Shown one piece after another: positions 4,345-34,526 of a DNA stretch of 38,991 bases (within the stretch, counting starts at the first letter, position 1; every line of letters begins with the position of its first letter). The DNA lies in the IMG/VR virus record IMGVR_UViG_3300047678_000084, positions 1 through 38,991 of that record. The stretch is one strand, 5' to 3'. The notes beneath the pieces were generated by a model, which saw nothing but the letters and a program-made list of their open reading frames with translations, searched no databases and had not been told where the DNA came from. The stretch is from a virus. The position numbers and the translations under genes are program-made.

Positions 4345-4534
4345 ACTTCCAGTTCTATTAAATACCAGACAATCAGAGTTCTTACGTGATCTCTTACATA
4401 CAATTAACAATGATCATATCCTAGACTTCCTAGTTGATAATGATTCACTGGATGATTGTGACGTTGCAGATCTATTGAGACAGCTAGAGATTATGGATCC
4501 CGAATACTTCTTTGGAGTAAACAAGAGTGCTTAG
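4337..4534 (+). CDS. Small acidic hypothetical protein
   Basis: A 65-residue acidic protein rich in Asp and Leu (DNDSLDDCDVADLLRQLEIMDPEYF). It overlaps the RHH gene by 8 bases and the following tube-like gene by 8 bases, which indicates tight translational coupling in this cluster. No domain was recognised. Small acidic partners of DNA-binding proteins exist in phages, but no such role can be read from the sequence. Confidence 0.55.
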   Translation: MTKLPVLLNTRQSEFLRDLLHTINNDHILDFLVDNDSLDDCDVADLLRQLEIMDPEYFFGVNKSA

Positions 4535-4961
4535 TGATTCATACATATGTTCCGAACCAAAGAAGAGGAAACCAAGAGCAACTAAACCTAAGCCAGTTGT
4601 TCATAAACCAAAGTTTACCCTCCATATTGATGGTATGGTTCTAAATCCTCTCCAGTTCACTTACAGGGACATTGTAGAACCATTAGGTGTTAAGGTACAC
4701 AGAGGAACTTTAATCCTCTCCAAAGAGGACTCAATTGCATTTAGGAGTACTCTAACTACCAAGGAGATGTTCTATACTAATCATAGGAATATGGAAGTAC
4801 ACTATGAGGGGAAGTGTAGGACAATAGATAAGCTAAATGGTTGTAGGATAATGAAGATAGAGAATAATCATACACAGGGTGAGCAGCATGTGGAGAAGAT
4901 TAAGCTCACATTTGTTTCAATTGAGTATGGTAAAGTGTTAGAAACACAAGAAAGAGAGTAA
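4527..4961 (+). CDS. Diverged paralog of the tail tube protein
   Basis: A 144-residue protein starting at GTG, with GGAG 10 bases upstream inside the preceding gene. Residues 1-28 are a basic, proline-rich extension (PKKRKPRATKPKPVVHKPK). From about residue 58 it aligns by eye with the tail tube protein at 11800-12288: both have a G-x-L/M-x-LSK segment, then a shared block LNGC-x-I-x-x-I-x-N-x-HT-x-G and a following Lys-hydrophobic strand. This strongly suggests a duplicated tube gene. Its partner at 4967-5335 likewise resembles the chaperone that follows the tube gene. It could be a second tube-like ring protein (neck or tail terminus), a baseplate-tube adaptor, or a leftover. The basic leader is absent from the tube protein. 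Confidence 0.7.
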   Translation: MLSDSYICSEPKKRKPRATKPKPVVHKPKFTLHIDGMVLNPLQFTYRDIVEPLGVKVHRGTLILSKEDSIAFRSTLTTKEMFYTNHRNMEVHYEGKCRTIDKLNGCRIMKIENNHTQGEQHVEKIKLTFVSIEYGKVLETQERE

Positions 4962-4966
4962 GAACG

Positions 4967-5335
4967 ATGAGAACGAAGTTTTATTTCAGGATACCGACAC
5001 GTCAAGAGTGGAGAAAGTATTCATTCAAGAAGAATGATGGTGTTCTAAAGTCATTAGAGTATATAGTACACACAACAATTACAGAGCCAGTACTTGAAGA
5101 GTATTTAAAGCTGGAACAGCAGAGAATTACACTTACCGAAGAGATTGGTCAACGACTTGTAGATATTTTAGTCTGCCTTACAGAAGATGGCACAGTTGAT
5201 AAGATTGAAGTCGATATTACAAAGCCAATTGTTACAATGAATAAGCCTGATGATGATGGCACTGAGTTTTATAGCGTATTAGAGAAGCTTGTACTAAAGA
5301 TCCTTGAGAAGAATAAGAAACTATTAGCATCATAA
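4967..5335 (+). CDS. Diverged paralog of the tail assembly chaperone domain
   Basis: A 122-residue protein beginning MRTKFYFRIPTRQEWRKYS. The motif FR-x-PT-x-x-EW is shared with both halves of the tail assembly chaperone at 12324-12908 (IFRLPTLQEWKEA and EFRAPTRAEWKRI), and the following helical, acidic pattern also fits. It starts 5 bases after the tube-like gene, copying the tube-chaperone gene order of the main tail operon. No frameshift heptamer was seen near its end, which instead runs into a strong terminator. It probably assists the tube-like paralog, but the function is inferred from relationship and order only. Confidence 0.65.
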   Translation: MRTKFYFRIPTRQEWRKYSFKKNDGVLKSLEYIVHTTITEPVLEEYLKLEQQRITLTEEIGQRLVDILVCLTEDGTVDKIEVDITKPIVTMNKPDDDGTEFYSVLEKLVLKILEKNKKLLAS

Positions 5336-9711: not shown

Positions 9712-9963
9712 ATGGAATTAAAGACTATAGAGGAATGGAAGAAAGAACTATTACCATATCCAAAGGAGTGGCAGAAGCTACCCGAAGGAAAGCGTCAGTA
9801 CTTTGAGGGTGTTTGGATGCCTGGAGAGGAAACTAAGGCAGGTAGTAAGGATTGGCTTTATAACTCTGCAAAGATTCTAAAGCGTTGGGCAGTTGGCGAA
9901 GAGATGACTAAAGAAGAGTTTGAGGCAGGATTGGCAGAATCTGCTGTCCACTATGTTCGATAA
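9712..9963 (+). CDS. Small hypothetical protein before tail sheath
   Basis: An 83-residue charged, Trp-rich protein (KEWQKLPEGKRQYF, GVWMPGEET, KDWLYNSAKILKRW) between the terminator-like gene and the sheath gene, 24 bases upstream of the latter. Mu has the small protein gp38 in the same slot, but no sequence match was seen. The ribosome site is AAAGAAGA upstream of ATG 9712. A tail assembly or structural role is inferred from position alone. Confidence 0.55.
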   Translation: MELKTIEEWKKELLPYPKEWQKLPEGKRQYFEGVWMPGEETKAGSKDWLYNSAKILKRWAVGEEMTKEEFEAGLAESAVHYVR

Positions 9964-9986
9964 GGAAAACAGGAGAATAAATTAAA

Positions 9987-11771
9987 ATGGCATTACCAGG
10001 AATTACTAGTCTCACCATAGTAGACGGTTCAATTGGCTTAACTACAAGCAATATTGGCTTGCACGTAAAGCTAGGAACATCTTCAAACGGTGTAGCTAAT
10101 CAAATCGTTTCAGTTTCAAATATCAATGATGTAAAGACTACATTTGGCGCAGGAAAGCTTGTAGATGCTTGTGCTGTGTCTTTCGACATCGTAAATAGTC
10201 CAGTCTATGCAATGAGGATGAATGCATCGGTTGCTGGTTCAGTATCCGCAACTACTATTAATCTTCAGTCAGGTTCAGACGGTATCCTATCTACAGCAGG
10301 TTCCGCTCCAAATAACGACTTTCAGGTTATTGTTACCCTAGTTCGTGCTGGTAAGGTTGGTATCGCACCATATCCTACCTTCACCTATTCACTAGATAAT
10401 GGTAATACAGTATCTCCAGAGACTGCTGTTCCAGCGGGTGGTGTATTCGTTATTCCACAGACTGGTGTAACTATTACCTTCACAAACGGTGGTACTGGCT
10501 TTAAAGCAGGGGATGTCTTCTCCTTCTATACTGTTGGCTCTACTTGGAATAACACAGATCTAAGTAATGCGCTGATTGCACTTCTAGCTGATTCACGTCA
10601 GTGGGAGTTTGTTCACGTTGTTGGTCCAGCAACTGCTGCACTTGCAGGTACAGTTGATACTTATATGACTACTGCTCAGACTAATAAGAGATTTGTGCAT
10701 GCAGTTGTAGAAGCAAGAGATATGGATCTTCTAGCTAGACTTACTACTTCAGGAAATGCATTCCCTATTACATTTGCTGGTGGTGAGACTCTAATTATTG
10801 ATATCTCAGTAGATGGTGGAAATACATATACCACTACTAAGACTTTCACCTTCCCCGCTGGAGCTATTGCAAACATTGCAACTCTTGTAGCTACACTGAA
10901 TGTAACTAGCTTTACTGGTGGTCTATTCGCTGTTGGAAATGTTGTAAACGAACTACAGCTATCAATCCCAGCAAATGCTGGTAAGACTGTTCTAAAGGTA
11001 AATGCAGGTTCTACAGCTATTGGTGTTGGTCTTCTACAGTATACAGGTGGTCAGCTATCAGTTGGTGAGTCAGAGGCACAATGGGAAGCTGCTCTAATTG
11101 CAGACTTCGTTAACTTCTCCTCACTACGAGTTGAAGTTTGTGCAGGTGCAGCGGATATCTTCTCACAGGCAACTCAGAGATATAACCGTAGAAATATTGG
11201 TTCTCTAGTAGCTGCAAGAACTGCTCTTGTTCCAATCCATGAGGATCTTGGTAACGTTCAGCGTGGTTCTCTACCAGATATTCTACTTCGTCAGCCAAAT
11301 GGTCAGCCAGGTGTCTTCCACGATGAATATACTTCTCCATCCCTAGATGCTGAGAGATTCACAACCATTCGTACAATCCCTGGTATCCAAGGATACTACA
11401 TTACAAATGGTAGACTTATGGCACCTAATGGTTCCGACTTTACTTATGTTCAGTACCGTAGAGTTATGGACGTTGCAACTACACTTCTAAATGCGGGTGC
11501 AACTCGATTCATTAACACAACTGTTAGAACAAACAGCACTGGTGGAACTATTTATGAAGTTGATGCTCGTAAGATCGAGAAGAACATCTATGCGTATATG
11601 TTTGGTAACATGAGAGAGAATCTCTCAAACATCAATGTAGTTGTAGATAGAAACAACAATGTCTACTCAACACTTACAGTAAACATCACTGCAAATATCC
11701 AGCCATTCGGTTATGCTAAGTTCATTAACCTAACCATTGGATTTGCACCAGTTGCTATTCTAGGTATTTAA
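9987..11771 (+). CDS. Contractile tail sheath protein
   Basis: A 594-residue sheath protein, the main indicator that the virion is a myovirus. The N-terminus (LPGITSLTIVDGSIG) and alternating domains fit the family, and the C-terminal region (NNNVYSTLTVNITANIQPFGYAKFINLTIGF) has the strand-rich end used to link neighbouring subunits. Residues about 255-355 form an extra beta domain (ETLIIDISVDGG, KTFTFPAGAIANIATLVATLN) that also appears in the baseplate J-like protein and the gp36-like connector. A sheath of this type typically has about 390-500 residues, so the insertion may account for the excess. It precedes the tube gene by 28 bases. Confidence 0.88.
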   Translation: MALPGITSLTIVDGSIGLTTSNIGLHVKLGTSSNGVANQIVSVSNINDVKTTFGAGKLVDACAVSFDIVNSPVYAMRMNASVAGSVSATTINLQSGSDGILSTAGSAPNNDFQVIVTLVRAGKVGIAPYPTFTYSLDNGNTVSPETAVPAGGVFVIPQTGVTITFTNGGTGFKAGDVFSFYTVGSTWNNTDLSNALIALLADSRQWEFVHVVGPATAALAGTVDTYMTTAQTNKRFVHAVVEARDMDLLARLTTSGNAFPITFAGGETLIIDISVDGGNTYTTTKTFTFPAGAIANIATLVATLNVTSFTGGLFAVGNVVNELQLSIPANAGKTVLKVNAGSTAIGVGLLQYTGGQLSVGESEAQWEAALIADFVNFSSLRVEVCAGAADIFSQATQRYNRRNIGSLVAARTALVPIHEDLGNVQRGSLPDILLRQPNGQPGVFHDEYTSPSLDAERFTTIRTIPGIQGYYITNGRLMAPNGSDFTYVQYRRVMDVATTLLNAGATRFINTTVRTNSTGGTIYEVDARKIEKNIYAYMFGNMRENLSNINVVVDRNNNVYSTLTVNITANIQPFGYAKFINLTIGFAPVAILGI

Positions 11772-11799: not shown

Positions 11800-12288
11800 A
11801 TGGCAACATCACGCTTTTCACAGAGAATTAATGGTTTCGTCTACGGATATAGCGATATTAACGTGGATATTGGCGGAGCTATTTTCGATGAAGTAACAGA
11901 ATTAACCTACGAGGCAACTATTGAAAAGGGAGAACTACGTGGTACTTCTCCAGTTCCAGCGGGTTATACTATTGGATATACAACATATAAGGGTTCTATG
12001 ACTCTCTCAAAGGATCAAGCAACCAAGTTCATGAAGCAATTAGGCAATGGATTTGCTGCTGTACCATTCACTATTACAGTGACTTATGGTCCTACTAGAG
12101 ACAGTCTTACAGAAACCAAGACAGCAACTGACACACTAAATGGTTGTGCCATTGCTTCTATTAGTAATTCACATACTCCAGGTGCTACTGCACTTCAAGT
12201 AAAGTTTGACTTGGTTATCCAAGACATCGCATTTGAAGGTGGAGCAGAGAATCCTGGTGGTCTACGTGCATTTAATCCTAATGCTTAA
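11800..12288 (+). CDS. Tail tube protein
   Basis: A 162-residue protein directly after the sheath gene, the normal place and size for a myovirus tube protein (Mu gpM-like). It begins with a beta-rich N-terminus (RFSQRINGFVYGYSDINVDIGG), has a central loop (YKGSMTLSKDQATKF) and a late block LNGCAIASISNSHTPG followed by a strand. The protein forms stacked hexameric rings inside the sheath. The late block is shared with the protein at 4527-4961, a diverged paralog with a basic leader. It is followed by the chaperone gene after 35 bases. Confidence 0.8.
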   Translation: MATSRFSQRINGFVYGYSDINVDIGGAIFDEVTELTYEATIEKGELRGTSPVPAGYTIGYTTYKGSMTLSKDQATKFMKQLGNGFAAVPFTITVTYGPTRDSLTETKTATDTLNGCAIASISNSHTPGATALQVKFDLVIQDIAFEGGAENPGGLRAFNPNA

Positions 12289-12323
12289 TTAGGTATTAAA
12301 CAGAAAGAAAGAGAGAAAGACAG

Positions 12324-12908
12324 ATGAGAATCACAGACGCACAAGTTACAGAACTAAAGGGTAAGTACCCAGATCTTTATCAAATCACTCGTAAGGAGTA
12401 TGACTATATTTTCAGACTGCCAACACTCCAGGAATGGAAAGAGGCAAGACGAAAGGATAGTACCTTCTCTACTAATGATAAGTTAGTTCAAACATGCCTA
12501 GTCTTCCCAACACTTCCAGAAATGAGGAGTGTTGAGAAGGCAGACGGTTATCTTGTAGAGGTACTTGGTCGCAAGCTAATTACCTTCTTAATGCAGGATG
12601 ATGAGGGTGATGAGGGACAGACTTATACTCTACCGGATGGTTCTGAAGGATTTAAGATTTCAAGGAAGGGTAGAACATATGAATTCCGTGCTCCTACAAG
12701 AGCAGAGTGGAAGCGTATTTCTAGCATGATTGGATCCGATAACTTCGGTGCCGTTGAGTACCTAGTAGCTCAGTGTAAGTTGAATCTATCAGACTCAGAA
12801 CTTCATGAGATTGTGGCTAACGATGTAGTCTTTATTGAACTAGTCGGCGGTCCATTCATTAAGGTAGTAGCTGAAGACTTGATGGATGCCGAGGGAAAAA
12901 AGATCTAG
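12324..12908 (+). CDS. Tail assembly chaperone, 0-frame product
   Basis: A 194-residue protein between the tube and tape measure genes, where tail assembly chaperones lie. It contains the motif FR-x-PT-x-x-EW twice: YIFRLPTLQEWKEARRK near residue 29 and YEFRAPTRAEWKRISS near residue 115, so it looks like an internal duplication of a roughly 90-residue domain. The same motif occurs once in the protein at 4967-5335. The stop codon TAG (12906-12908) lies 3 bases after a slippery heptamer, and a longer fusion product is expected. Chaperones of this kind bind the tape measure protein and control tube polymerisation. Confidence 0.75.
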   Translation: MRITDAQVTELKGKYPDLYQITRKEYDYIFRLPTLQEWKEARRKDSTFSTNDKLVQTCLVFPTLPEMRSVEKADGYLVEVLGRKLITFLMQDDEGDEGQTYTLPDGSEGFKISRKGRTYEFRAPTRAEWKRISSMIGSDNFGAVEYLVAQCKLNLSDSELHEIVANDVVFIELVGGPFIKVVAEDLMDAEGKKI

Positions 12909-17424: not shown

Positions 17425-18945
17425 ATGCCTCCTACTCCACAAACACTTACCCAATTACTCAATCCTCCATCTACTAATGATCTATTAGTAAAGATCGTAG
17501 GTATGTTATCGTCTCAAGGTTTCTCAGCTACAGACTGGGAGACTGATTCCGATGGCAGAGTAATTCTTCAGGTTGAAGCACAGACTCTAGAAGATCTCTG
17601 GCAAGCTGTCTATAACATCGCAAAGGGTGGTTATCTAGATACTGCAACTGGAGAATGGCTAACTCTATTAGCCAGGTCTCAGTATGAAATTGAAAGAAAT
17701 CCTGCTACCTATACTGTAGGTAGTTTTACTCTTAGTGCAATTCCAGGTGTTGGTCCATATACTTTTAATGCTGGTGATCTTGTAGTTACTACATTCGATG
17801 GCAATGGAAATGCTCTCGTATATAGAAGCACTAATGCTGTTCCTGTAGTTGTAAATCCTGGAGCATCTATTGGTATTCAGGTAACTGCTGACTCTCCAGG
17901 TTCTAGGTTTAATATTCCTGCTGGAAGTACTCTTGTAAATAACACACCAAGACCAGGACTATTTGTTACAAATCCAGGTACTCTACAGCCAGCATTTGCA
18001 ATAGGTGCAGTTCTAAATGGTCCCTTCTTTACTAGGAATCAGACATTTATTATCTCTGCTTCTATTAACGGTGGTGCTCCAATTGGTCCAATTTCATACA
18101 CCTTTCCTGCAAGCTATCCAAATATGGCAGCAGTTGCTGGTGCATTGAATGCACTTATCGCAGCAGAAGGTTCTCTAAATGGTAAGGTAATTGCAAATAC
18201 AGCAAATGGCGCACTAGTTCTAAATACTATTGATCCTGCTGGTGCAACAATAATTGACACTCTTACTATCTCTAGGACTGGTACTGCAAACATTACCCTT
18301 GGATTCGATAAGACTCTAGATACTTCAGCATCGGGTTCATATGCTTGGATTACTACATATGGTCAAGATGAGGAGTCCGATCCATCTCTAGTACAGAGAT
18401 GCCAGAACAAGTGGGCAACTATTGGTGCAGGTACAAGAGCAGCATTTATTAGTTGGGCAACTACAGCAGACGCAGCAGTTCAAAAGGTTGCAGTGTATTC
18501 TAACCTATTCAATGGAACTCCAAAAGCGGGTGCAGTAACTCTATATATCGCAGGCATTGGTGTCTTTACTCCAGCGGAAGGTATTATCCACTCTGGAAAT
18601 GTATATAATTACATTGCTCCAAAGCTTCCAATTATGACTGAGCTTTATGTAACAGCAGCTACAAGACAGAATGTCGAAGTAGGATTTACTGCTACAATTA
18701 AGACTGCAAATAATAATGACCAAACAAAAGCTGCTGTAATCAATGCTATCCAGCAACTCTTTAATGATCTTAGTATTGGAGATACTATCTATTATGATCA
18801 AGTAGTTGCAGCAATTATTACAGTTCCAGGTATTGTAGATGCGAACGTGACTCTGAATGGTGCGAAGGTTAATATCACACCATCTATTAATCAGATCTGT
18901 TCTTTAAGTATTCCAAACCCACCAGTATATATCGTGGTTTCATAA
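17425..18945 (+). CDS. Baseplate J-like protein (Mu gp47-type) with inserted beta domain
   Basis: A 506-residue protein with the expected J-like start (LLVKIVGMLSSQGFSATDWETDSDGRV), the GYLDTATGEWLTLLARSQY block near residue 75, and a C-terminal TKAAVINAIQQLFNDLSIGDTIYYDQVVAAI segment typical of this family. Residues about 195-300 form an extra beta domain (FIISASINGGAPIG, YTFPASYPNMAAVAGALN, TGTANITLGFDKTLD). It resembles segments in the sheath and in the gp36-like connector. Baseplate J proteins form the wedge ring around the hub. The gene is 30 bases after the gp25-like gene and 11 bases before the next tail protein. Confidence 0.82.
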   Translation: MPPTPQTLTQLLNPPSTNDLLVKIVGMLSSQGFSATDWETDSDGRVILQVEAQTLEDLWQAVYNIAKGGYLDTATGEWLTLLARSQYEIERNPATYTVGSFTLSAIPGVGPYTFNAGDLVVTTFDGNGNALVYRSTNAVPVVVNPGASIGIQVTADSPGSRFNIPAGSTLVNNTPRPGLFVTNPGTLQPAFAIGAVLNGPFFTRNQTFIISASINGGAPIGPISYTFPASYPNMAAVAGALNALIAAEGSLNGKVIANTANGALVLNTIDPAGATIIDTLTISRTGTANITLGFDKTLDTSASGSYAWITTYGQDEESDPSLVQRCQNKWATIGAGTRAAFISWATTADAAVQKVAVYSNLFNGTPKAGAVTLYIAGIGVFTPAEGIIHSGNVYNYIAPKLPIMTELYVTAATRQNVEVGFTATIKTANNNDQTKAAVINAIQQLFNDLSIGDTIYYDQVVAAIITVPGIVDANVTLNGAKVNITPSINQICSLSIPNPPVYIVVS

Positions 18946-19783: not shown

Positions 19784-20668
19784 ATGCAACCATTTAATTC
19801 TAACGCGAATAACCCAAACATTTCTCAGCTACACAGCTATCTATTTCCTGTAGATAACGTAGACAGAGCAAGTGTTACCACAGTTAATCCAACTGCTGCA
19901 TCTCTAGCAAATGATATTCACTTTATGATGAGAGCAGGAGCATCACTGAGACCTCATATTGCTATGAGGTGTGCTGATAGTGCAAACATTAGCGTATTTG
20001 CCCATGGGTTTACTTATGCCTTCAATGGTACAAAGTGGATTCCACAATTAAAGTCAGCAAGCTTTACAATTACACCAGCAGGTCTTATAGCGGATACTTG
20101 GTATTACGTCTATATGAAGACTAATAACCTAAACATTGGAGATCCTCCATATGAAGTATCTCTAACTCCGCCTGAGCTTACTCTTACCTTTAAGACAGCG
20201 GATCAGACTCAGAGATACATGGGTAGCTTCTTAACAAACGCTGTAGGTATTATTGTACCGTTTGGCATGGTAGATTTTGATTATGACTTTGGTGTTCCAC
20301 TGGATACCAACTTCTCAAATCTTGCAGGTCCATTTGCAGGTCCAGGTCCATCGGATATTATTATTCCACAAATCTCTCCACTAGCTAAGAAGGTAAAGCT
20401 TGTTACAAGACTTACATCTCTAGCTGGTGCTACACAACAGCTTAATGTAACTGTTGCTCCAAAGGAGCTGATTAGCTTTACAAGTGCTACATGGCAAGGA
20501 TATACAGTTAATCCAATCATCTGTGGTGGTGATGCTGACTCTCAAGAGATTAAGCATGACTTCTATCAGGAGTTCCCTCTGTTTGCATCTAAGAGATTAG
20601 TAGCACAGGTACAAGCACCAGTAATCTCTCTAAAGGGACAGATGTGGTGGGTAGGATTTAAGGAGTAA
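19784..20668 (+). CDS. Tail fibre-like protein, paralog 1
   Basis: A 294-residue protein, the first of three tandem fibre-like genes. The shared landmark is WYYVYMKT near residue 108, then a strand, then TADQTQRYMGSFLTNAVGIIVPF near residue 145. It starts with MQPFNSNANNPNI and is beta-rich throughout, with a Pro/Gly-rich link (AGPFAGPGPSDIIIP) around residue 185. Such proteins form trimeric fibres or receptor-binding tips next to tail protein I. The tandem genes suggest a mixed fibre or an adaptor-tip pair. Ribosome site AAAGAAAGGATG. Confidence 0.65.
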   Translation: MQPFNSNANNPNISQLHSYLFPVDNVDRASVTTVNPTAASLANDIHFMMRAGASLRPHIAMRCADSANISVFAHGFTYAFNGTKWIPQLKSASFTITPAGLIADTWYYVYMKTNNLNIGDPPYEVSLTPPELTLTFKTADQTQRYMGSFLTNAVGIIVPFGMVDFDYDFGVPLDTNFSNLAGPFAGPGPSDIIIPQISPLAKKVKLVTRLTSLAGATQQLNVTVAPKELISFTSATWQGYTVNPIICGGDADSQEIKHDFYQEFPLFASKRLVAQVQAPVISLKGQMWWVGFKE

Positions 20669-20673
20669 TTGTC

Positions 20674-21495
20674 ATGTCACAAACATACACAGGAACTGCT
20701 GCATATACTAATTCGATTACCATCCCTGATGATGGTGATCCTGCTGCTGCTGCATCTGTAAATCCAGCATCTAAGTCTGAAGCGGACATGAATATGTTCC
20801 TCCTTCAGTCTATTGGACTACAGCCAGAAAGCTCCAGCGATATAGTTATAAGTAGCACCGATAGAAGTACAATTAATATTGGAGCAATCTCTTCATTCAT
20901 TGTGAATGAGAATGGTCTATATAAGGCAATTGGTACAAATGGTGTTGTAACTATTGGTATCGGACAAGTAGAAGGTGGACCAGCTCAGTTTGATCCATCC
21001 ACTTGGTATTACATCTATGCCTTCTCTACCCTTGGTATTCTTACCTTTATTATTAGAAAGGTGCGTCCAGATGTTTGGAGAATGTTTGCACTGGGTAGTG
21101 ATACACAGAGATATGTTGGTTGCTTTAGAACAGACTCAGGAACACCTCCAGAGATTCTTCCCTTTGTTGCATCTAGAGGTAAGTATAGCTACCTTGATGA
21201 ACTCTCAGCGGGTGGTGGAAACGCTATTGCAGAGACTCTCATTGCTACAAATGGATACATCCCACCTACATCTAGATGTGGAGTATTTGGTTGGAAGTAT
21301 GCAAATGCTGGACTAGCAAGCACATTTAACTTAGTACCTGTAGCAGGACTACCAGGATATGTGTTTATTGCAAGGCAGCTTATTGATGATTCTGGAGCAG
21401 TAGAACTACCAGTTGATGGAAATCAACAGCTTAGATACTTTGTAGGATCCGCAGACGTGGTACTTTCAGTCTATGTACATGGATTCTATGAATAA
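20674..21495 (+). CDS. Tail fibre-like protein, paralog 2
   Basis: A 273-residue protein starting 5 bases after paralog 1. It has the same landmark at WYYIYAFS near residue 111, followed by RMFALGSDTQRYVGCFRTD near residue 144 and PFVASRGKYSYLD. An N-terminal segment is alanine-rich (DPAAAASVNPASKSEADMNMF), similar in place to the start of paralog 1 (VNPTAASLANDIHFMM). The C-terminal third is a beta domain (YFVGSADVVLSVYVHGFYE) ending in an aromatic motif, similar to the GFRE end of paralog 3. Probable fibre or tip protein. Confidence 0.65.
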   Translation: MSQTYTGTAAYTNSITIPDDGDPAAAASVNPASKSEADMNMFLLQSIGLQPESSSDIVISSTDRSTINIGAISSFIVNENGLYKAIGTNGVVTIGIGQVEGGPAQFDPSTWYYIYAFSTLGILTFIIRKVRPDVWRMFALGSDTQRYVGCFRTDSGTPPEILPFVASRGKYSYLDELSAGGGNAIAETLIATNGYIPPTSRCGVFGWKYANAGLASTFNLVPVAGLPGYVFIARQLIDDSGAVELPVDGNQQLRYFVGSADVVLSVYVHGFYE

Positions 21496-21506
21496 GGAGG
21501 ATACAC

Positions 21507-22778
21507 ATGGCAAGTACATATAGTGGTGGTCCTCTTCTAGCAGCAGGTGGACAGGTAATTACCCGACAGGATAGGCCTGCGGAGATTACTACAAATGCAG
21601 TTGGCTCAGCAACTTTAGGAATTGGTGATACTTTAAACTTAAGAGTAAGTGGAGATGGTGGAGCAACATGGGCAAACATTAACTTTGTCTGTCCCTTTCC
21701 ATTTGGTCCATTTACAGGATTTGAAGCACAACAGTTTGTAGATGCTTGTAACCTATTTATTACTGGACTCGGTAATGATCGAGTAGAGTGGTTTGTACCA
21801 GAGACAAATACAGTTTCTGGATTACAGATTGGTGTAAGGACAGCAGTTTATACTGGACCAAATGCTGTAATTCAAATTCTAAATGGAACTGCAATCCCTA
21901 CAGGATTTGACTTTGTACCAGGATCTCAAGTACGTGGTGTAGAGGGTTATACAGACTTTCTAATCCAACCAAGTCCAGGTGATCCTTTTACAGCAGTATC
22001 TGTTAATAACTATGAAACTGGTCTGCGCTCTAGGGATTATCATATTACCCATAAGCTAGCAGATGCTACGAACTCTAAGGGACATATATTTGCAGAGTCT
22101 ACAAATGGAGTAAGCATCAAGGTTAGTCCTGTAGCTGGAGTACAATTCAATCCAGTATTTGGTGGAGTAACTACTCCCTTCTATCAATTCGATGAAGAGG
22201 GTATTGATGTTCTAGATAATACATATCTAGATGTTCCAGGACAGTTTGCAGCAAATACTTGGTATTATGTTTATGTCTATTACTTTACAGGTGGTCTATT
22301 AAAGCCAGCTAAGTTTAGCTGGGAGGTATCCGCTACACCACCAAATGTTTGGAAGACATTCAAAGCTGGTGATACATCTAGGAAGTATCTCTTTCCATTT
22401 AGAACAAATGGAGTTGGAGTAATCCATCCCTTTCAGAAGGAGGGATTCAACTACAAGTATACTACTCGTCATGGAATCCTTACTGCTGGAAGTGGCCTAA
22501 TGGATACTACAGTGGATGCTACCTCAGTAATTCCACCTACATCAGTATTTGGTTTACTAAGACTATTCATTGACAACAGCGCAAATGGAGCAACTGGTAC
22601 GATTCGTATTGGTCCAGATAGAGTGTCCGGTGTTACAGGTATTAACTTTATCTGTAATGCAAATGAGACAACTTCAAACATCCAGATCTATGTTCCTACA
22701 GGAAATCAGAAGTTCTTCTATAAAGTAGGAGATGCCAATACCTCTCTAGGTATTGATGTTTGGGGATTCAGAGAATAA
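21507..22778 (+). CDS. Tail fibre-like protein, paralog 3 (longest)
   Basis: A 423-residue protein, third of the tandem set, 11 bases after paralog 2. The landmark is WYYVYVYYF near residue 252, then TFKAGDTSRKYLFPFRTNGVGVIHPF near residue 288, then PPTSVFGLLRLFI. It is longer than the other two because of an N-terminal beta domain (residues about 30-130: LNLRVSGDGGATWANIN, VDACNLFITGLG) that loosely resembles the inserted domain in the sheath and J-like proteins. Ends VWGFRE, like the end of paralog 2. A terminator follows. Likely the distal, receptor-contacting fibre, but this is inference. Confidence 0.65.
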   Translation: MASTYSGGPLLAAGGQVITRQDRPAEITTNAVGSATLGIGDTLNLRVSGDGGATWANINFVCPFPFGPFTGFEAQQFVDACNLFITGLGNDRVEWFVPETNTVSGLQIGVRTAVYTGPNAVIQILNGTAIPTGFDFVPGSQVRGVEGYTDFLIQPSPGDPFTAVSVNNYETGLRSRDYHITHKLADATNSKGHIFAESTNGVSIKVSPVAGVQFNPVFGGVTTPFYQFDEEGIDVLDNTYLDVPGQFAANTWYYVYVYYFTGGLLKPAKFSWEVSATPPNVWKTFKAGDTSRKYLFPFRTNGVGVIHPFQKEGFNYKYTTRHGILTAGSGLMDTTVDATSVIPPTSVFGLLRLFIDNSANGATGTIRIGPDRVSGVTGINFICNANETTSNIQIYVPTGNQKFFYKVGDANTSLGIDVWGFRE

Positions 22779-27004: not shown

Positions 27005-27781
27005 ATGGCAAGTCCAAAAGTAGAAGTATTTTTTGCATATGATTCAGTTACTGGTCTTCCAAAGCCAGGACTAGTTCCTACGTTTAGTAGCTATACAACT
27101 GAAGCTGGTGTAGCAATTGTTCCACAGCCATCTATTACAGATGTAGGCGGTGGAGCATATGAATTCACTCCAGTCTTTGCTGATCCTGCACACGGTATTA
27201 TCTATCAAGTAGCTACTGGAGCATCTCCAGGTTATTGGGGTAGATACATGCGTCCAGAGGATTGGAATGATGATAACTCAAATGTCTTAGCATCTCTAAT
27301 AAAGGCAAAGACAGATAACCTACCAGCATCTCCAGCCAATGAAGTAACAAGTACAGCTATTAAAGCTAAGACTGATCTTATTGGTACTGCTTCAGTTGCA
27401 TCTCAATCAGATGTAACTACCGCAGTTACTGCATCCACTATTTCAATTAAGGGAGCACAAGATCTATCTATCTCCAATATTGCTGGTGGTGCAAGTTATG
27501 TACAGGCAGATGATAACCTACATGCAATCTCACAAGCTGTAAGCGGTGGTGGAAGTAACCCATGGGATGATCTGCTAGCTAATCATAATCTGTCAGGATC
27601 ATTTGGTGCAGCTATTCGATTGATTCAGCAAGCAGTTGCAGGAGATCAGAAGATTGTAACAACTACAGCTAGATTACAGATTATAGACACCGATGGTGTT
27701 TCTGTTCTACGAGAGTTCTATCTCCTAGACGAGAATAATCAGCCATCTGTAAATAATACCAAGTACAGGAAGAAGGTTTAA
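27005..27781 (+). CDS. Virion structural protein of unknown type
   Basis: A 258-residue protein. The N-terminus (VEVFFAYDSVTGLPKPGLVPTFSSY) is a beta domain; residues 80-120 carry a helical segment (DDNSNVLASLIKAKTDNLPASPANEVTST) and a second copy of the pattern (TAIKAKTDLIGTA), typical of trimeric shaft or fibre base proteins. The C-terminus (TTARLQIIDTDGVSVLREFYLLDENNQPS) has the ending seen in many phage head-fibre or baseplate-fibre proteins. It is translationally coupled to the small gene upstream and separated by three bases from the gp36-like gene. Role inferred. Confidence 0.55.
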   Translation: MASPKVEVFFAYDSVTGLPKPGLVPTFSSYTTEAGVAIVPQPSITDVGGGAYEFTPVFADPAHGIIYQVATGASPGYWGRYMRPEDWNDDNSNVLASLIKAKTDNLPASPANEVTSTAIKAKTDLIGTASVASQSDVTTAVTASTISIKGAQDLSISNIAGGASYVQADDNLHAISQAVSGGGSNPWDDLLANHNLSGSFGAAIRLIQQAVAGDQKIVTTTARLQIIDTDGVSVLREFYLLDENNQPSVNNTKYRKKV

Positions 27782-27784
27782 TCT

Positions 27785-28591
27785 ATGGCAATTTCAGTAG
27801 CAAATGGTCTTGGAGGTGTAGGTAGTTCATACGCTACTCCAAATGACTTACAGTTTCTATCAATGCCAAACTTTGGAGATCCTGCTGCAATTGATGGTAA
27901 TATTGTATCCCTTCCATTTACAGTTACTGGACTTTCTCTTATTGTAACTGTGACTATTGATGGGTTAACTCAACCGGAGTACACATATACCTTTCCAGCA
28001 GACTATGCCACACTAGATCTTCTAGTTGCTGCTATTAGTATCCCTGGTCTGATTGCAGTTAATAATGGTGGTGTTCTTAGATTAAGAACTACAAAGGTAG
28101 GTATCTCTCAGGGATTAACTATCAATCATCTAGGTACTGCAAATGAAAAGGTAGGATTCAATAAGTTCTTTGATACCACTATGAATGGCAGATCTACTCT
28201 TACAAGTGATATTACTGAAGATGAGATGATCTTTGCTCTTGTAGCTGCATCATCTCTAGCGAATGGTTATCTAAAGCGCAGATACCTTCTCCCAATTACT
28301 TCATGGAGCTATGACTTGATTCAAGTTATATGTGACATCGCAGCTTATAACATTGCAAAGAGACAAGGGTTCAATCCTGAAGTCTATGATGCCAATTGGG
28401 TTAATAAGTATAATGCTGGTATCAAGTGGTTAGAAGATGTAGGTAATCGTAGAGAGCATCCAGTTATTGTATCTGGCGGTGAACCACTAGCACCTACTGC
28501 ATCTACACAAGGCACTCAGGATGACATTAGAGGTTGGGGTAACGTTATAGGTAGTCGTGGAAACTATCCATCTACAAGACCATTTGAGTAG
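27785..28591 (+). CDS. Mu gp36-like head-tail connector with inserted beta domain
   Basis: A 268-residue protein. The ends match the gp36/DUF1320 connector: YATPNDLQFLSM at the start and, in the second half, LVAASSLANGYLKRRYLLPI, LIQVICDIAAYNIAKRQ and WVNKYNAGIKWLEDVGN. Between them, residues about 38-125, is a beta domain (FTVTGLSLIVTVTIDG, YTYTFPADYATLDLLVAAIS, GTANEKVGFNKFFDTTM) that closely resembles a segment of the J-like protein and one of the sheath. Standard gp36 proteins are about 130-150 residues, so the insertion nearly doubles it. The gene is displaced from the head genes, lying next to fibre and lysis genes. Confidence 0.75.
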   Translation: MAISVANGLGGVGSSYATPNDLQFLSMPNFGDPAAIDGNIVSLPFTVTGLSLIVTVTIDGLTQPEYTYTFPADYATLDLLVAAISIPGLIAVNNGGVLRLRTTKVGISQGLTINHLGTANEKVGFNKFFDTTMNGRSTLTSDITEDEMIFALVAASSLANGYLKRRYLLPITSWSYDLIQVICDIAAYNIAKRQGFNPEVYDANWVNKYNAGIKWLEDVGNRREHPVIVSGGEPLAPTASTQGTQDDIRGWGNVIGSRGNYPSTRPFE

Positions 28592-29727: not shown

Positions 29728-30312
29728 ATGAAACCTACTGAATTGATAGTTAATAGCGGTAATCCTAGATCTTCTGGTATTTATATGATTTTATGTTTGC
29801 CTACTGGGAAAGCATATATTGGTCAATCGAAGAACATTGAGACTAGATGGAGAAGTCATAAACTTACTTTAAGAAAACAAATACACCGCAATCCAATTCT
29901 TCAGAATCTTTGGAACAAGTATGGAAAGGATTGTTTTTTCTTTTATGTACTTGAAAATACAACACAAGAGAAGTTGACTGTAAGAGAGCAACATTATGTA
30001 GATTTAATAGATTCTACTCTTCTTATAAATATTGCTGTACCAGAAGATCCAACTAAACTCTCCCCAGAATCCATAGAGAAAATCCGACAAAAAGCTTATG
30101 GAAATAAGAGGGGTGTTGCAAATAAAGGTAAACACCACACAGAAGATTCTCGTAAGAAAATGTCAGAAAAGCATAAAGGTAAGAAGCTTTCAGAAGAGAC
30201 TAAACTCAAGATGTCTCTGGTACGAAAAGGTAGGAAGCACACTCAAGAACATATAAATAATCGAGTAGCTTCCCTAATCAAAAATCGTACCGAAAATAAT
30301 CCTACAAGTTAA
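29728..30312 (+). CDS. GIY-YIG homing endonuclease with NUMOD3 repeats (1)
   Basis: A 194-residue free-standing endonuclease. The catalytic domain has GIY at residues 17-19, YIG at 30-32, R40 and E87 (LTVREQHY), the four elements of this nuclease fold. From residue about 103 come helix-turn repeats of NUMOD3 type (SPESIEKIRQK, TEDSRKKMSEK-HKGKK, SEETKLKMSL-VRKGRK) used for DNA recognition. No SD is visible before the ATG; a TACTAT/TATAAA-like stretch lies about 7-12 bases upstream, so the transcript may be leaderless. Probable selfish mobile gene that spreads by cutting related phage DNA. Confidence 0.88.
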   Translation: MKPTELIVNSGNPRSSGIYMILCLPTGKAYIGQSKNIETRWRSHKLTLRKQIHRNPILQNLWNKYGKDCFFFYVLENTTQEKLTVREQHYVDLIDSTLLINIAVPEDPTKLSPESIEKIRQKAYGNKRGVANKGKHHTEDSRKKMSEKHKGKKLSEETKLKMSLVRKGRKHTQEHINNRVASLIKNRTENNPTS

Positions 30313-30906: not shown

Positions 30907-31110
30907 ATGTCTAAAGATCAAATCGCACTAGAGATAAAGAATATTGTATTAAGTAAGAAGACTGTTACCCAAGATGAATTAGCTCAGAGATTAGCTGCAA
31001 TCAGATTTCTTACAATTAGAGAAAGCTATCCTGTAATTAAAGATATGATCGCTAATGATCAACTTAGAATGACTACAGAAGCTACAGGTAAGATGGTATT
31101 TCATGCCTAG
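30907..31110 (+). CDS. Small hypothetical protein, winged-helix-like
   Basis: A 67-residue protein with a helix-turn-helix-like order: ALEIKNIVLSKKTVTQDELAQRLAAIRFL followed by a second helix ESYPVIKDMIANDQLRM and a strand-like tail. This recalls a small winged-helix DNA- or RNA-binding domain, but the match is by pattern only. It overlaps the following GIY-YIG gene by 8 bases. Confidence 0.45.
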   Translation: MSKDQIALEIKNIVLSKKTVTQDELAQRLAAIRFLTIRESYPVIKDMIANDQLRMTTEATGKMVFHA

Positions 31111-31504
31111 CTTATCCCCTGAGCAGATCGAGAAGATGGTTCAAAGTAGAAAGAAGAAGGAGGAACATCTTGCTACTTTAATTACAGAGAATCAATTCAA
31201 CTTTCCAACCACTCTAATCTCTGGTATATACGCCATCTTCTGTATCTCTACAAATAAAGTCTACTTCGGTAAGTCTGTAAATGTAAGAGGTAGGATGCTA
31301 AAGCATAAGCGATGTTTGAGACAGGGTATTCATATCAATAAGAGATTACTCCGCGCATTTAGAAAGTATGGAGAGAGTCAGTTTATCTTCTGCTTAGTGG
31401 AGTCTGTAGTTCCAGAACTACTCTCAAAGCGAGAGAGACATTATATTATGCATTATAAGTCTTTTAGAGATTACTATGGATTTAACATAAAGAAGGTTTT
31501 ATAG
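31103..31504 (+). CDS. GIY-YIG endonuclease without NUMOD repeats (2)
   Basis: A 133-residue protein with GIY at residues 41-43, YFG at 54-56, R62/R64 and E111 (RERHYI), matching the GIY-YIG fold. It has a 40-residue basic N-terminal extension and no NUMOD3 tail, so it is a minimal catalytic unit. The ATG overlaps the preceding gene by 8 bases and has only a weak ribosome site. Terminator-like stem follows at 31541. Probably a reduced homing or repair-type nuclease. Confidence 0.8.
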   Translation: MPSLSPEQIEKMVQSRKKKEEHLATLITENQFNFPTTLISGIYAIFCISTNKVYFGKSVNVRGRMLKHKRCLRQGIHINKRLLRAFRKYGESQFIFCLVESVVPELLSKRERHYIMHYKSFRDYYGFNIKKVL

Positions 31505-33803: not shown

Positions 33804-34526
33804 ATGACTAGTAAAGAGTTTATAACAAGGTATTCAAAAGATGTCTCAGTTAAAAATGCCGTTGGCATTTATGCTATTTATTGTATTGGAGACGATAAGA
33901 TATACGTTGGCCAATCTAAGAATATATATAGGAGATGGAGGCATCATAAGTCTAAATTAGATACCAAAAAGCATCACAATATTCATCTACAAAATGCATG
34001 GAATAAGTATGGAAAGTCACTCTTTCTATTTATTGTTCTAGAAATATGTGATGTTGCACTCTTAACAGAGAAAGAGGAATTCTATCTTAGTCAATTAGAC
34101 GAGACTCTACGTTTCAATCTTCATATTGTTAGAGAACATATGCAGATGTCTTCTGAAACAAAGGAAAAGATCGCCAATAAATTGCGCGGTACAGATAGAT
34201 TAACTAAGGAAGGTAGGAAAAAACTTAGTGAAATAAATAAGGGAAATTCTAACTTCAAGGGAAGAACCCATTCAGAAGAATCTAAAAGAAAGATATCTGA
34301 AAGGCAAATCGGCAAATGTCTTCCAGAAGAACAAAGGAGAAATCAATCCTTAGCACATATGGGGAAAATAGCCTCAGATGAAACTAAGAAGAAAATGTCT
34401 CTTGCTAAGAAGGGTAAGAAGTTATCCCCAGAAACTATATCTAGAATGATAGCAGCACAACAAAAAAGAAGACTTGAAGCTAAAGTCTATAATAGACTAC
34501 AAACGACGGAGAATAATAATGAGTAA
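33804..34526 (+). CDS. GIY-YIG homing endonuclease with NUMOD3 repeats (3)
   Basis: A 240-residue protein with GIY at residues 21-23, YVG at 34-36, R43/R44 and E91/E92. The C-terminal half has about five NUMOD3-like repeats (SSETKEKIANK, TKEGRKKLSEI-NKGN, SEESKRKISER-QIGK, SDETKKKMSLA-KKGKK, SPETISRMIAA). The gene ends overlapping the start of the small terminase gene by 8 bases. It has no SD and a -10-like TATAAT a few bases before ATG. Homing endonuclease genes inserted beside terminase genes are common in phages; its target is probably the same locus in relatives. Confidence 0.88.
   Translation: MTSKEFITRYSKDVSVKNAVGIYAIYCIGDDKIYVGQSKNIYRRWRHHKSKLDTKKHHNIHLQNAWNKYGKSLFLFIVLEICDVALLTEKEEFYLSQLDETLRFNLHIVREHMQMSSETKEKIANKLRGTDRLTKEGRKKLSEINKGNSNFKGRTHSEESKRKISERQIGKCLPEEQRRNQSLAHMGKIASDETKKKMSLAKKGKKLSPETISRMIAAQQKRRLEAKVYNRLQTTENNNE

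What the first reader, a model, noticed from the sequence alone, without database searches (positions are those of the whole stretch)
27785..28591. One beta domain recurs inside unrelated virion proteins
A segment of about 90-100 residues with a V/I-D/N-G-G turn, a conserved TFPA strand, a hydrophobic helix (LVAAL-like) and a GTAN-x-x-x-GF-x-K end occurs in the gp36-like connector (residues about 38-125), the J-like protein (about 195-300) and, with less similarity, the sheath (about 255-355). A more distant version may form the N-terminus of the third fibre (about 30-130). It looks like a surface domain that has spread between structural genes by internal copying, decorating neck, sheath and baseplate.
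Basis: partly seen in the sequence, partly recalled or inferred. Interest (0 to 1): 0.8.

Follow-up and report, generated by a model that had tools for sequence, protein, structure and literature searches.

The report
One domain inserted into several virion proteins
In a small group of Mu-like phages the same ~105-residue domain has been inserted into the head-tail adaptor, the baseplate J protein and the tail sheath (and probably one tail fibre), while the same proteins in related phages lack it; the fold type is known from other virion and flagellar proteins, but this spread across the virion of one lineage has not, as far as I could find, been described.

Summary
An approximately 105-residue domain sits as a clean insert in the gp36-like adaptor (residues ~30-138), the J-like baseplate protein (~187-307) and the DUF2586 sheath (~248-366). 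gp36 and J copies are unmistakably homologous (shuffle Z 15; hhalign E 2e-18); the sheath copy is confirmed by profile (E 3e-8). The third-fibre segment is probable, not proven (E 1.5e-4; best of 65 control segments).
All three inserts occur in the same three phages (this one, RXKA01000176, IMG/VR 3300033067_000408, whose J carries two tandem copies) and in none of 49 other J, 36 sheath and 28 gp36 relatives. AlphaFold gives the same beta-beta-beta-alpha-beta-beta-beta(-beta) order for the J and gp36 copies (pLDDT 85 and 90-98).
Foldseek matches are only fold-level: phage sheath lateral domains, podovirus nozzle, FliD, flagellin, a recurrent fold already noted in 2025. No Pfam, PHROG or NCBIfam model covers it.
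Copying within the genome is the best reading; direction, and any adhesive or stabilising function, are inferred. New variant of a known kind (virion-domain promiscuity).

The parts
27785..28591 (+). gp36-like head-tail adaptor gene (Phage_Mu_Gp36), 268 aa, interrupted by the domain
   Evidence: Pfam PF07030 E 2.5e-12 on residues 143-221; relatives are 129-156 aa
27872..28198 (+). inserted domain, gp36 copy (residues ~30-138), between helix 1 (YATPNDL) and helix 2
   Evidence: family alignment, HMM residues 34-138, AlphaFold pLDDT 90-98 over most of the insert
17425..18945 (+). J-like baseplate wedge protein gene, 506 aa
   Evidence: Pfam Baseplate_J E 8e-27, phrog_6 E 1e-40
17983..18345 (+). 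inserted domain, J copy (residues ~187-307)
   Evidence: family alignment, HMM residues 190-306, AlphaFold pLDDT 85, pTM 0.77
9987..11771 (+). tail sheath gene (DUF2586), 594 aa
   Evidence: Pfam DUF2586 E 2.8e-43, phrog_907 tail sheath
10728..11084 (+). inserted domain, sheath copy (residues ~248-366)
   Evidence: family alignment, HMM residues 252-362, hhalign to gp36+J copies E 3e-8
21507..22778 (+). third tail-fibre-like gene, 423 aa
   Evidence: ORF; body shared with fibres 1 and 2
21591..21947 (+). probable fourth copy, fibre 3 N-terminal segment (residues ~29-147)
   Evidence: hhalign E 1.5e-4 to 2e-4, best of 65 control segments; inserted after the MASTYSG start relative to fibres 1/2 and to the third fibre of L055
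10242..10550 (+). the sheath's own older lateral domain (SlDGG type, residues 86-188), not the same as the insert; itself found in J of other relatives
   Evidence: HMM scan of 39 sheaths and 52 J proteins

Best explanation
A roughly 105-residue beta-sandwich-plus-helix domain entered the common ancestor of three Mu-like phages and was copied between its virion genes, landing in loops of the head-tail adaptor (gp36), the baseplate wedge protein J and the sheath, and probably near the N-terminus of the third fibre; one lineage then doubled it inside J. Because each insert sits in a loop that relatives close directly, it should project from the conserved core without disturbing assembly. By analogy with Mu (12 adaptor, 12 gp47/J-like and about 180 sheath copies per virion) it would give a multivalent accessory surface that weakly binds the host envelope or an appendage, or props neighbouring subunits. 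Shown: homology, insertion, clade restriction, predicted fold. Inferred: copying inside the genome, exposure, binding or stabilising role.
For: Homology of copies. Clean inserts against Riverbug, MMP17, Mx4, mushu and SfMu. Present in 3 of 52 J, 3 of 39 sheath, 3 of 31 gp36 proteins, always the same three phages. Carriers monophyletic (UFBoot 100), nested in insert-free sheaths. Tandem pair in J of L055. No close homologue of the domain elsewhere: 50,697 phage records, 398 genomes, viral contigs. Folded unit with the same strand/helix order in J and gp36. A parallel case in sister phages, where the sheath's own SlDGG domain occurs in J, even at the same J site. Copy numbers by analogy: Mu structure PMC11915804. 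Accessory sheath domains proposed to aid adhesion or stability: PMC9230969.
Against: Copies share only about 19-43% identity between host proteins and no DNA similarity, so the copying is old and its direction is not recoverable; the domain tree does not cleanly group the J copies together. Separate acquisitions from an unseen outside source cannot be excluded. Only three carrier genomes are known, and the gp36 copy of the third is cut by the contig end. The inserts evolve somewhat faster than their hosts between the two closest phages but are not hypervariable (gp36 63 vs 70%, J 56 vs 64-75%, sheath 70 vs 76-88%), so there is no strong sign of a receptor arms race. The gp36 body was modelled with only moderate confidence.
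Confidence: 0.65

Rival explanations
1. Separate acquisitions: each virion gene took the domain independently from an outside pool of phage or flagellar proteins carrying this promiscuous fold, rather than by copying inside the genome.
For: The fold is widespread in virion proteins (PMC12846349); the sheath copy is clearly more distant from gp36/J than these are from each other; one bacterial flagellin matches the domain profile at E 1.8e-6 in one of 398 genomes.
Against: All three gains fall on the same branch; no outside protein is closer to any copy than the other copies are; gp36-J similarity runs through the linkers on both sides.
Confidence: 0.22
2. The domain is a structural brace, not an adhesin: it stabilises neck, sheath and baseplate by contacting neighbouring subunits. 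(A rival on function only; compatible with either origin.)
For: Additional sheath domains in phage 812 contact neighbours (cited in PMC9230969); two of the proteins are core assembly parts not usually near the host; sequence is only modestly faster evolving than the host proteins.
Against: The closest relatives assemble without it in all three proteins, and partners in adaptor, sheath and wedge are entirely different, so a common bracing contact is hard to imagine except domain-to-domain.
Confidence: 0.3
3. Ancestral domain lost elsewhere: all relatives once had it in the three proteins and lost it.
For: Loss of one domain copy from J (two copies in L055, one in the others) is possible.
Against: Carriers are a single clade nested within insert-free lineages; many independent precise losses in three genes would be needed.
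Confidence: 0.03
4. Convergent composition: beta-rich, Thr/Gly-rich phage segments look alike by chance.
For: The fibre-3 segment is at chance in pairwise tests.
Against: Z 15 for gp36-J, profile E-values 2e-18 and 3e-8, control segments of the same genomes far lower, bridging copies in L055.
Confidence: 0.02

Closest known systems
Seven-stranded beta-sandwich with flanking alpha-helix: lateral domain of phiTE/Sf14/Adele sheaths, podovirus nozzle, auxiliary capsid proteins, FliD and flagellin (PMC12846349)
   Same: Strand-helix order of both AlphaFold models and the Foldseek neighbours (phiTE sheath prob 0.90, tail tubular protein B 0.66, FliD 0.47, V. cholerae FlaB 0.99, Milano and 7-7-1 tail entries ~0.6) are the classes named there.
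   Different: No Foldseek match reaches E 0.001; no sequence-level link to sheath domain II or FliD; here it sits in a head-tail adaptor and a baseplate J protein, which are not on that list, and in three to four proteins of one genome.
Phage_sheath_domII (PF17481), the usual lateral sheath domain (e.g. Milano residues 91-203)
   Same: Similar fold class (inferred); also a lateral addition to a sheath.
   Different: No Pfam hit for any copy and hhalign at background; the usual position is occupied in this sheath by another domain (SlDGG, residues 86-188), the new one being at 248-366.
Flagellin_IN motif (PF07196) of FliD and flagellins
   Same: Fold-level similarity; a flagellin (L089) is the only cellular protein that the profile finds with a convincing score.
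   Different: No Pfam hit to PF07196; hhalign to FliD copies at background.
Promiscuous Ig-like domains of phages (Fraser et al. 2006, cited in PMC9230969 and PMC10684548)
   Same: An accessory beta domain scattered over different virion proteins, thought to aid weak adhesion.
   Different: Not Ig-like by any HMM; has a central helix; inserted internally rather than added at a terminus or by frameshift; restricted to one clade.

Membership tests
Phage_Mu_Gp36 (host protein of the finding) | Pfam PF07030 match and short N-terminal helix before the helical core | tested here: met
   E 2.5e-12 on residues 143-221; YATPNDL start retained before the insert
Recurrent beta-sandwich + helix virion/flagellar fold (PMC12846349) | about seven strands flanked by one helix, shared with sheath lateral domains, nozzle, FliD, flagellin | tested here: inconclusive
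   strand/helix order fits and the same protein classes are the top Foldseek hits, but no match has E below 0.001 and TM-scores are about 0.45-0.55 at best
Phage_sheath_domII PF17481 | HMM match above the family cut-off | tested here: not met
   no hit for any of 10 copies at E up to 10; hhalign score 13.1, within background
Flagellin_IN PF07196 | HMM match above the family cut-off | tested here: not met
   no hit at E up to 10; FliD profile at background; a flagellin lacking a PF07196 hit does match the domain profile
Promiscuous phage Ig-like domains | Ig-like HMM or all-beta Ig fold | tested here: not met
   no Ig family in Pfam or NCBIfam scans; model contains a central helix; nanobody/antibody Foldseek hits have low probability
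Promiscuous phage Ig-like domains | present on some and absent on other homologues of several unrelated virion proteins | tested here: met
   3/52 J, 3/39 sheath, 3/31 gp36
Promiscuous phage Ig-like domains | weak binding to the cell surface | not testable with these tools
   needs a binding or adsorption assay

The most novel reading that the evidence does not exclude
The inserts are a flagellin/FliD-type module that makes the whole virion sticky for the host's flagellum (or another filament), copied onto neck, sheath, baseplate and fibre. The only phage tail structures among the top solved-structure matches are those of phiTE, Milano and 7-7-1, all flagellum-dependent phages (PMC3475682, PMC10811340), and the only good cellular profile match is a flagellin.
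Probability: 0.07. Interest if true: 0.8.

Novelty: new variant of a known kind. Interest (0 to 1): 0.5.

Why it matters
Accessory domains on single virion proteins are well known, but here one sequence family can be followed into three (probably four) structurally unrelated proteins of one phage lineage, with insert-free homologues in sister phages as natural controls. That makes it a tractable case for asking how virion domains move inside a genome, which loops of adaptor, sheath and wedge tolerate them, and what a virion gains from many copies. A second, different domain (the sheath's SlDGG domain) shows the same sheath-J sharing in related phages, even at the same J site, which suggests a general route.

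Tried and rejected
Pfam, PHROGs and NCBIfam models for the insert: none. Origin from sheath domain II, DUF3383 sheaths or FliD IN motifs at sequence level: hhalign at background. The weak FlgE hit in the first genome search was dropped: it did not recur among the listed matches once more copies were added. Other weak genome hits (L090-L101) are unrelated proteins or noise. The relative's third fibre first seemed to lack the domain; that was a contig-end artefact, the domain is there. DNA-level similarity between copies: none convincing. Base composition of inserts equals that of flanks (38-41% G+C), so no sign of recent foreign origin. PDB sequence search with the domain profile: nothing convincing. 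A gp36 alignment in which short homologues were drawn into the domain region was discarded before modelling.

Full report
What was checked. The window is a 38,991-base IMG/VR virus record encoding a Mu-like contractile phage: Mu portal, gp36-like adaptor, DUF2586 sheath, Baseplate_J and gp25-like proteins are recognised by Pfam and PHROGs. The named segments of gp36 (P0001), J (P0002), sheath (P0003) and the third fibre (P0004) were tested pairwise with 1000 shuffles each: gp36-J Z 15.1, gp36-sheath 5.9, J-sheath 3.9, fibre 3 against the other three -0.3 to 1.9. tblastn of J on its own genome returns the gp36 insert with E 2.7e-9.

Relatives. Only one close relative was found in the bacterial genome collection: contig RXKA01000176.1 of a Proteobacteria MAG, related gene by gene over almost its whole length, with the domain in J, gp36, sheath and third fibre. 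A third, more distant carrier was found in IMG/VR, 3300033067_000408 (L055/L060/L063): its sheath is 51% identical, its J (608 aa) carries two tandem copies (residues 184-294 and 300-409), its gp36, cut by the contig end, carries one, and its third fibre carries none. Isolated phages with the same virion genes are Thermus phage Riverbug, Meiothermus MMP7/MMP17, Myxococcus Mx4, Mushuvirus and SfMu.

The inserts are real and derived. In family alignments the extra 110-120 residues drop out cleanly: gp36 268 aa against 129-156; J 506/508 against 357-376 (Mx4 487 because of another N-terminal domain); sheath 594 against 469-481. A scan of 52 J, 39 sheath and 31 gp36 proteins (some partial or near-duplicates) found the domain in exactly the same three phages for all three genes. 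A sheath tree with inserts removed puts the three carriers together with full bootstrap support, nested among insert-free sheaths.

One family. Profile-profile comparison gives gp36 vs J E 2e-18, gp36+J vs sheath E 3e-8, all copies vs fibre 3 E 1.5e-4. As a control, 65 other segments of the same two genomes were compared with the domain profile: the best one that does not itself cover part of fibre 3's N-terminus scored 13.8, while the fibre 3 domain scored 28.8. Fibre 3's segment also behaves as an insert after its MASTYSG start relative to fibres 1 and 2. I therefore count fibre 3 as a probable fourth copy. The domain tree is poorly resolved, DNA similarity between copies is gone and base composition matches the flanks, so the spread is old.

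Fold. AlphaFold of the J copy with seven domain copies: pLDDT 85, pTM 0.77, order beta-beta-beta-alpha-beta-beta-beta-(alpha)-beta. AlphaFold of whole gp36: the insert is the most confident part (block means 90-98 over most of it), same order, between helix 19-23 and helix 145-166. The two models share alignment rows, so they are not fully independent. Foldseek finds only fold-level neighbours: phiTE sheath (0.90), FliD (0.47), tail tubular protein B (0.66), Vibrio flagellins (up to 0.99 for the gp36 model, over an alignment that also includes gp36's helices), Milano and 7-7-1 tail entries (about 0.6), none with E below 0.001. A 2025 paper describes this set (sheath lateral domain, nozzle, auxiliary capsid protein, FliD, flagellin) as sharing a seven-stranded beta-sandwich with a helix (PMC12846349). 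The profile also finds one bacterial flagellin with E 1.8e-6 among 398 genomes. No sequence link to sheath domain II, DUF3383 or FliD was found.

Mechanism. In Mu, whose gp36 (gene product J in the PDB naming) is the nearest solved relative of the adaptor body (weak, E 0.04), the adaptor is a dodecamer, gp47 is present twice per wedge and the sheath has 30 hexameric rings (PMC11915804). By analogy the insert would be displayed at the neck, along the tail and on the baseplate. A study of sheath evolution proposes adhesion or virion stabilisation for extra domains (PMC9230969). I favour a multivalent accessory surface; which of the two functions applies is open. Internal copying is preferred because the gains coincide on one branch and no closer outside relatives were found, but separate acquisition remains possible.

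A parallel. The sheath's own older domain (SlDGG type, residues 86-188 here) occurs also in the N-terminal part of J in Mx4, L035, L046/L047, L048, L049, L052, L061 and L062; in L035, L048 and L061 there is a second copy at the very J site used by the new domain, and L035, L048 and L052 have a second copy in the sheath. Its patchy distribution on the sheath tree (for example L046 with, its neighbour L050 without) suggests that sheath-J domain sharing is a repeated process in this phage group.

Verdict. Observation confirmed; interpretation partly supported; new variant of the known phenomenon of promiscuous virion domains, with a new sequence family and new host proteins (adaptor and J).

Noticed in passing
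window 10242-10550 (sheath residues 86-188); L010, L035, L046-L049, L052, L061, L062: A second, different domain (SlDGG type), ancestral in nearly all these sheaths, recurs in the J proteins of several related phages, in three of them also at the same J site as the window's insert, and is doubled in some sheaths.
   Followed up: partly
window 4527-5335 versus 11800-12908: Two adjacent genes (4527-4961, 4967-5335) look like diverged copies of the tail-tube-like gene and the gene after it (11800-12288, 12324-12908); in the relative RXKA01000176 the extra pair lies on the opposite strand to the tail genes.
   Followed up: no
window 29728-30312, 31103-31504, 33804-34526; L003 8908-9585; L060 15412-16035: Several mutually similar genes that look like GIY-YIG homing endonucleases sit between virion genes at positions that differ between the three phages; in L060 one lies directly upstream of gp36. 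They could promote local recombination.
   Followed up: no
window 27005-27781: The gene before gp36 shares its C-terminal 160 residues (77% identity) with the relative, but the N-terminal part is not alike (258 vs 404 aa): a module exchange.
   Followed up: no
window 19784-22778: Three tandem paralogous fibre-like genes with a shared body; a similar tandem trio exists in the two relatives.
   Followed up: partly
L014 J protein (9857-11431): A J protein of 525 aa with extra sequence near the same insertion site that matches neither domain profile.
   Followed up: no
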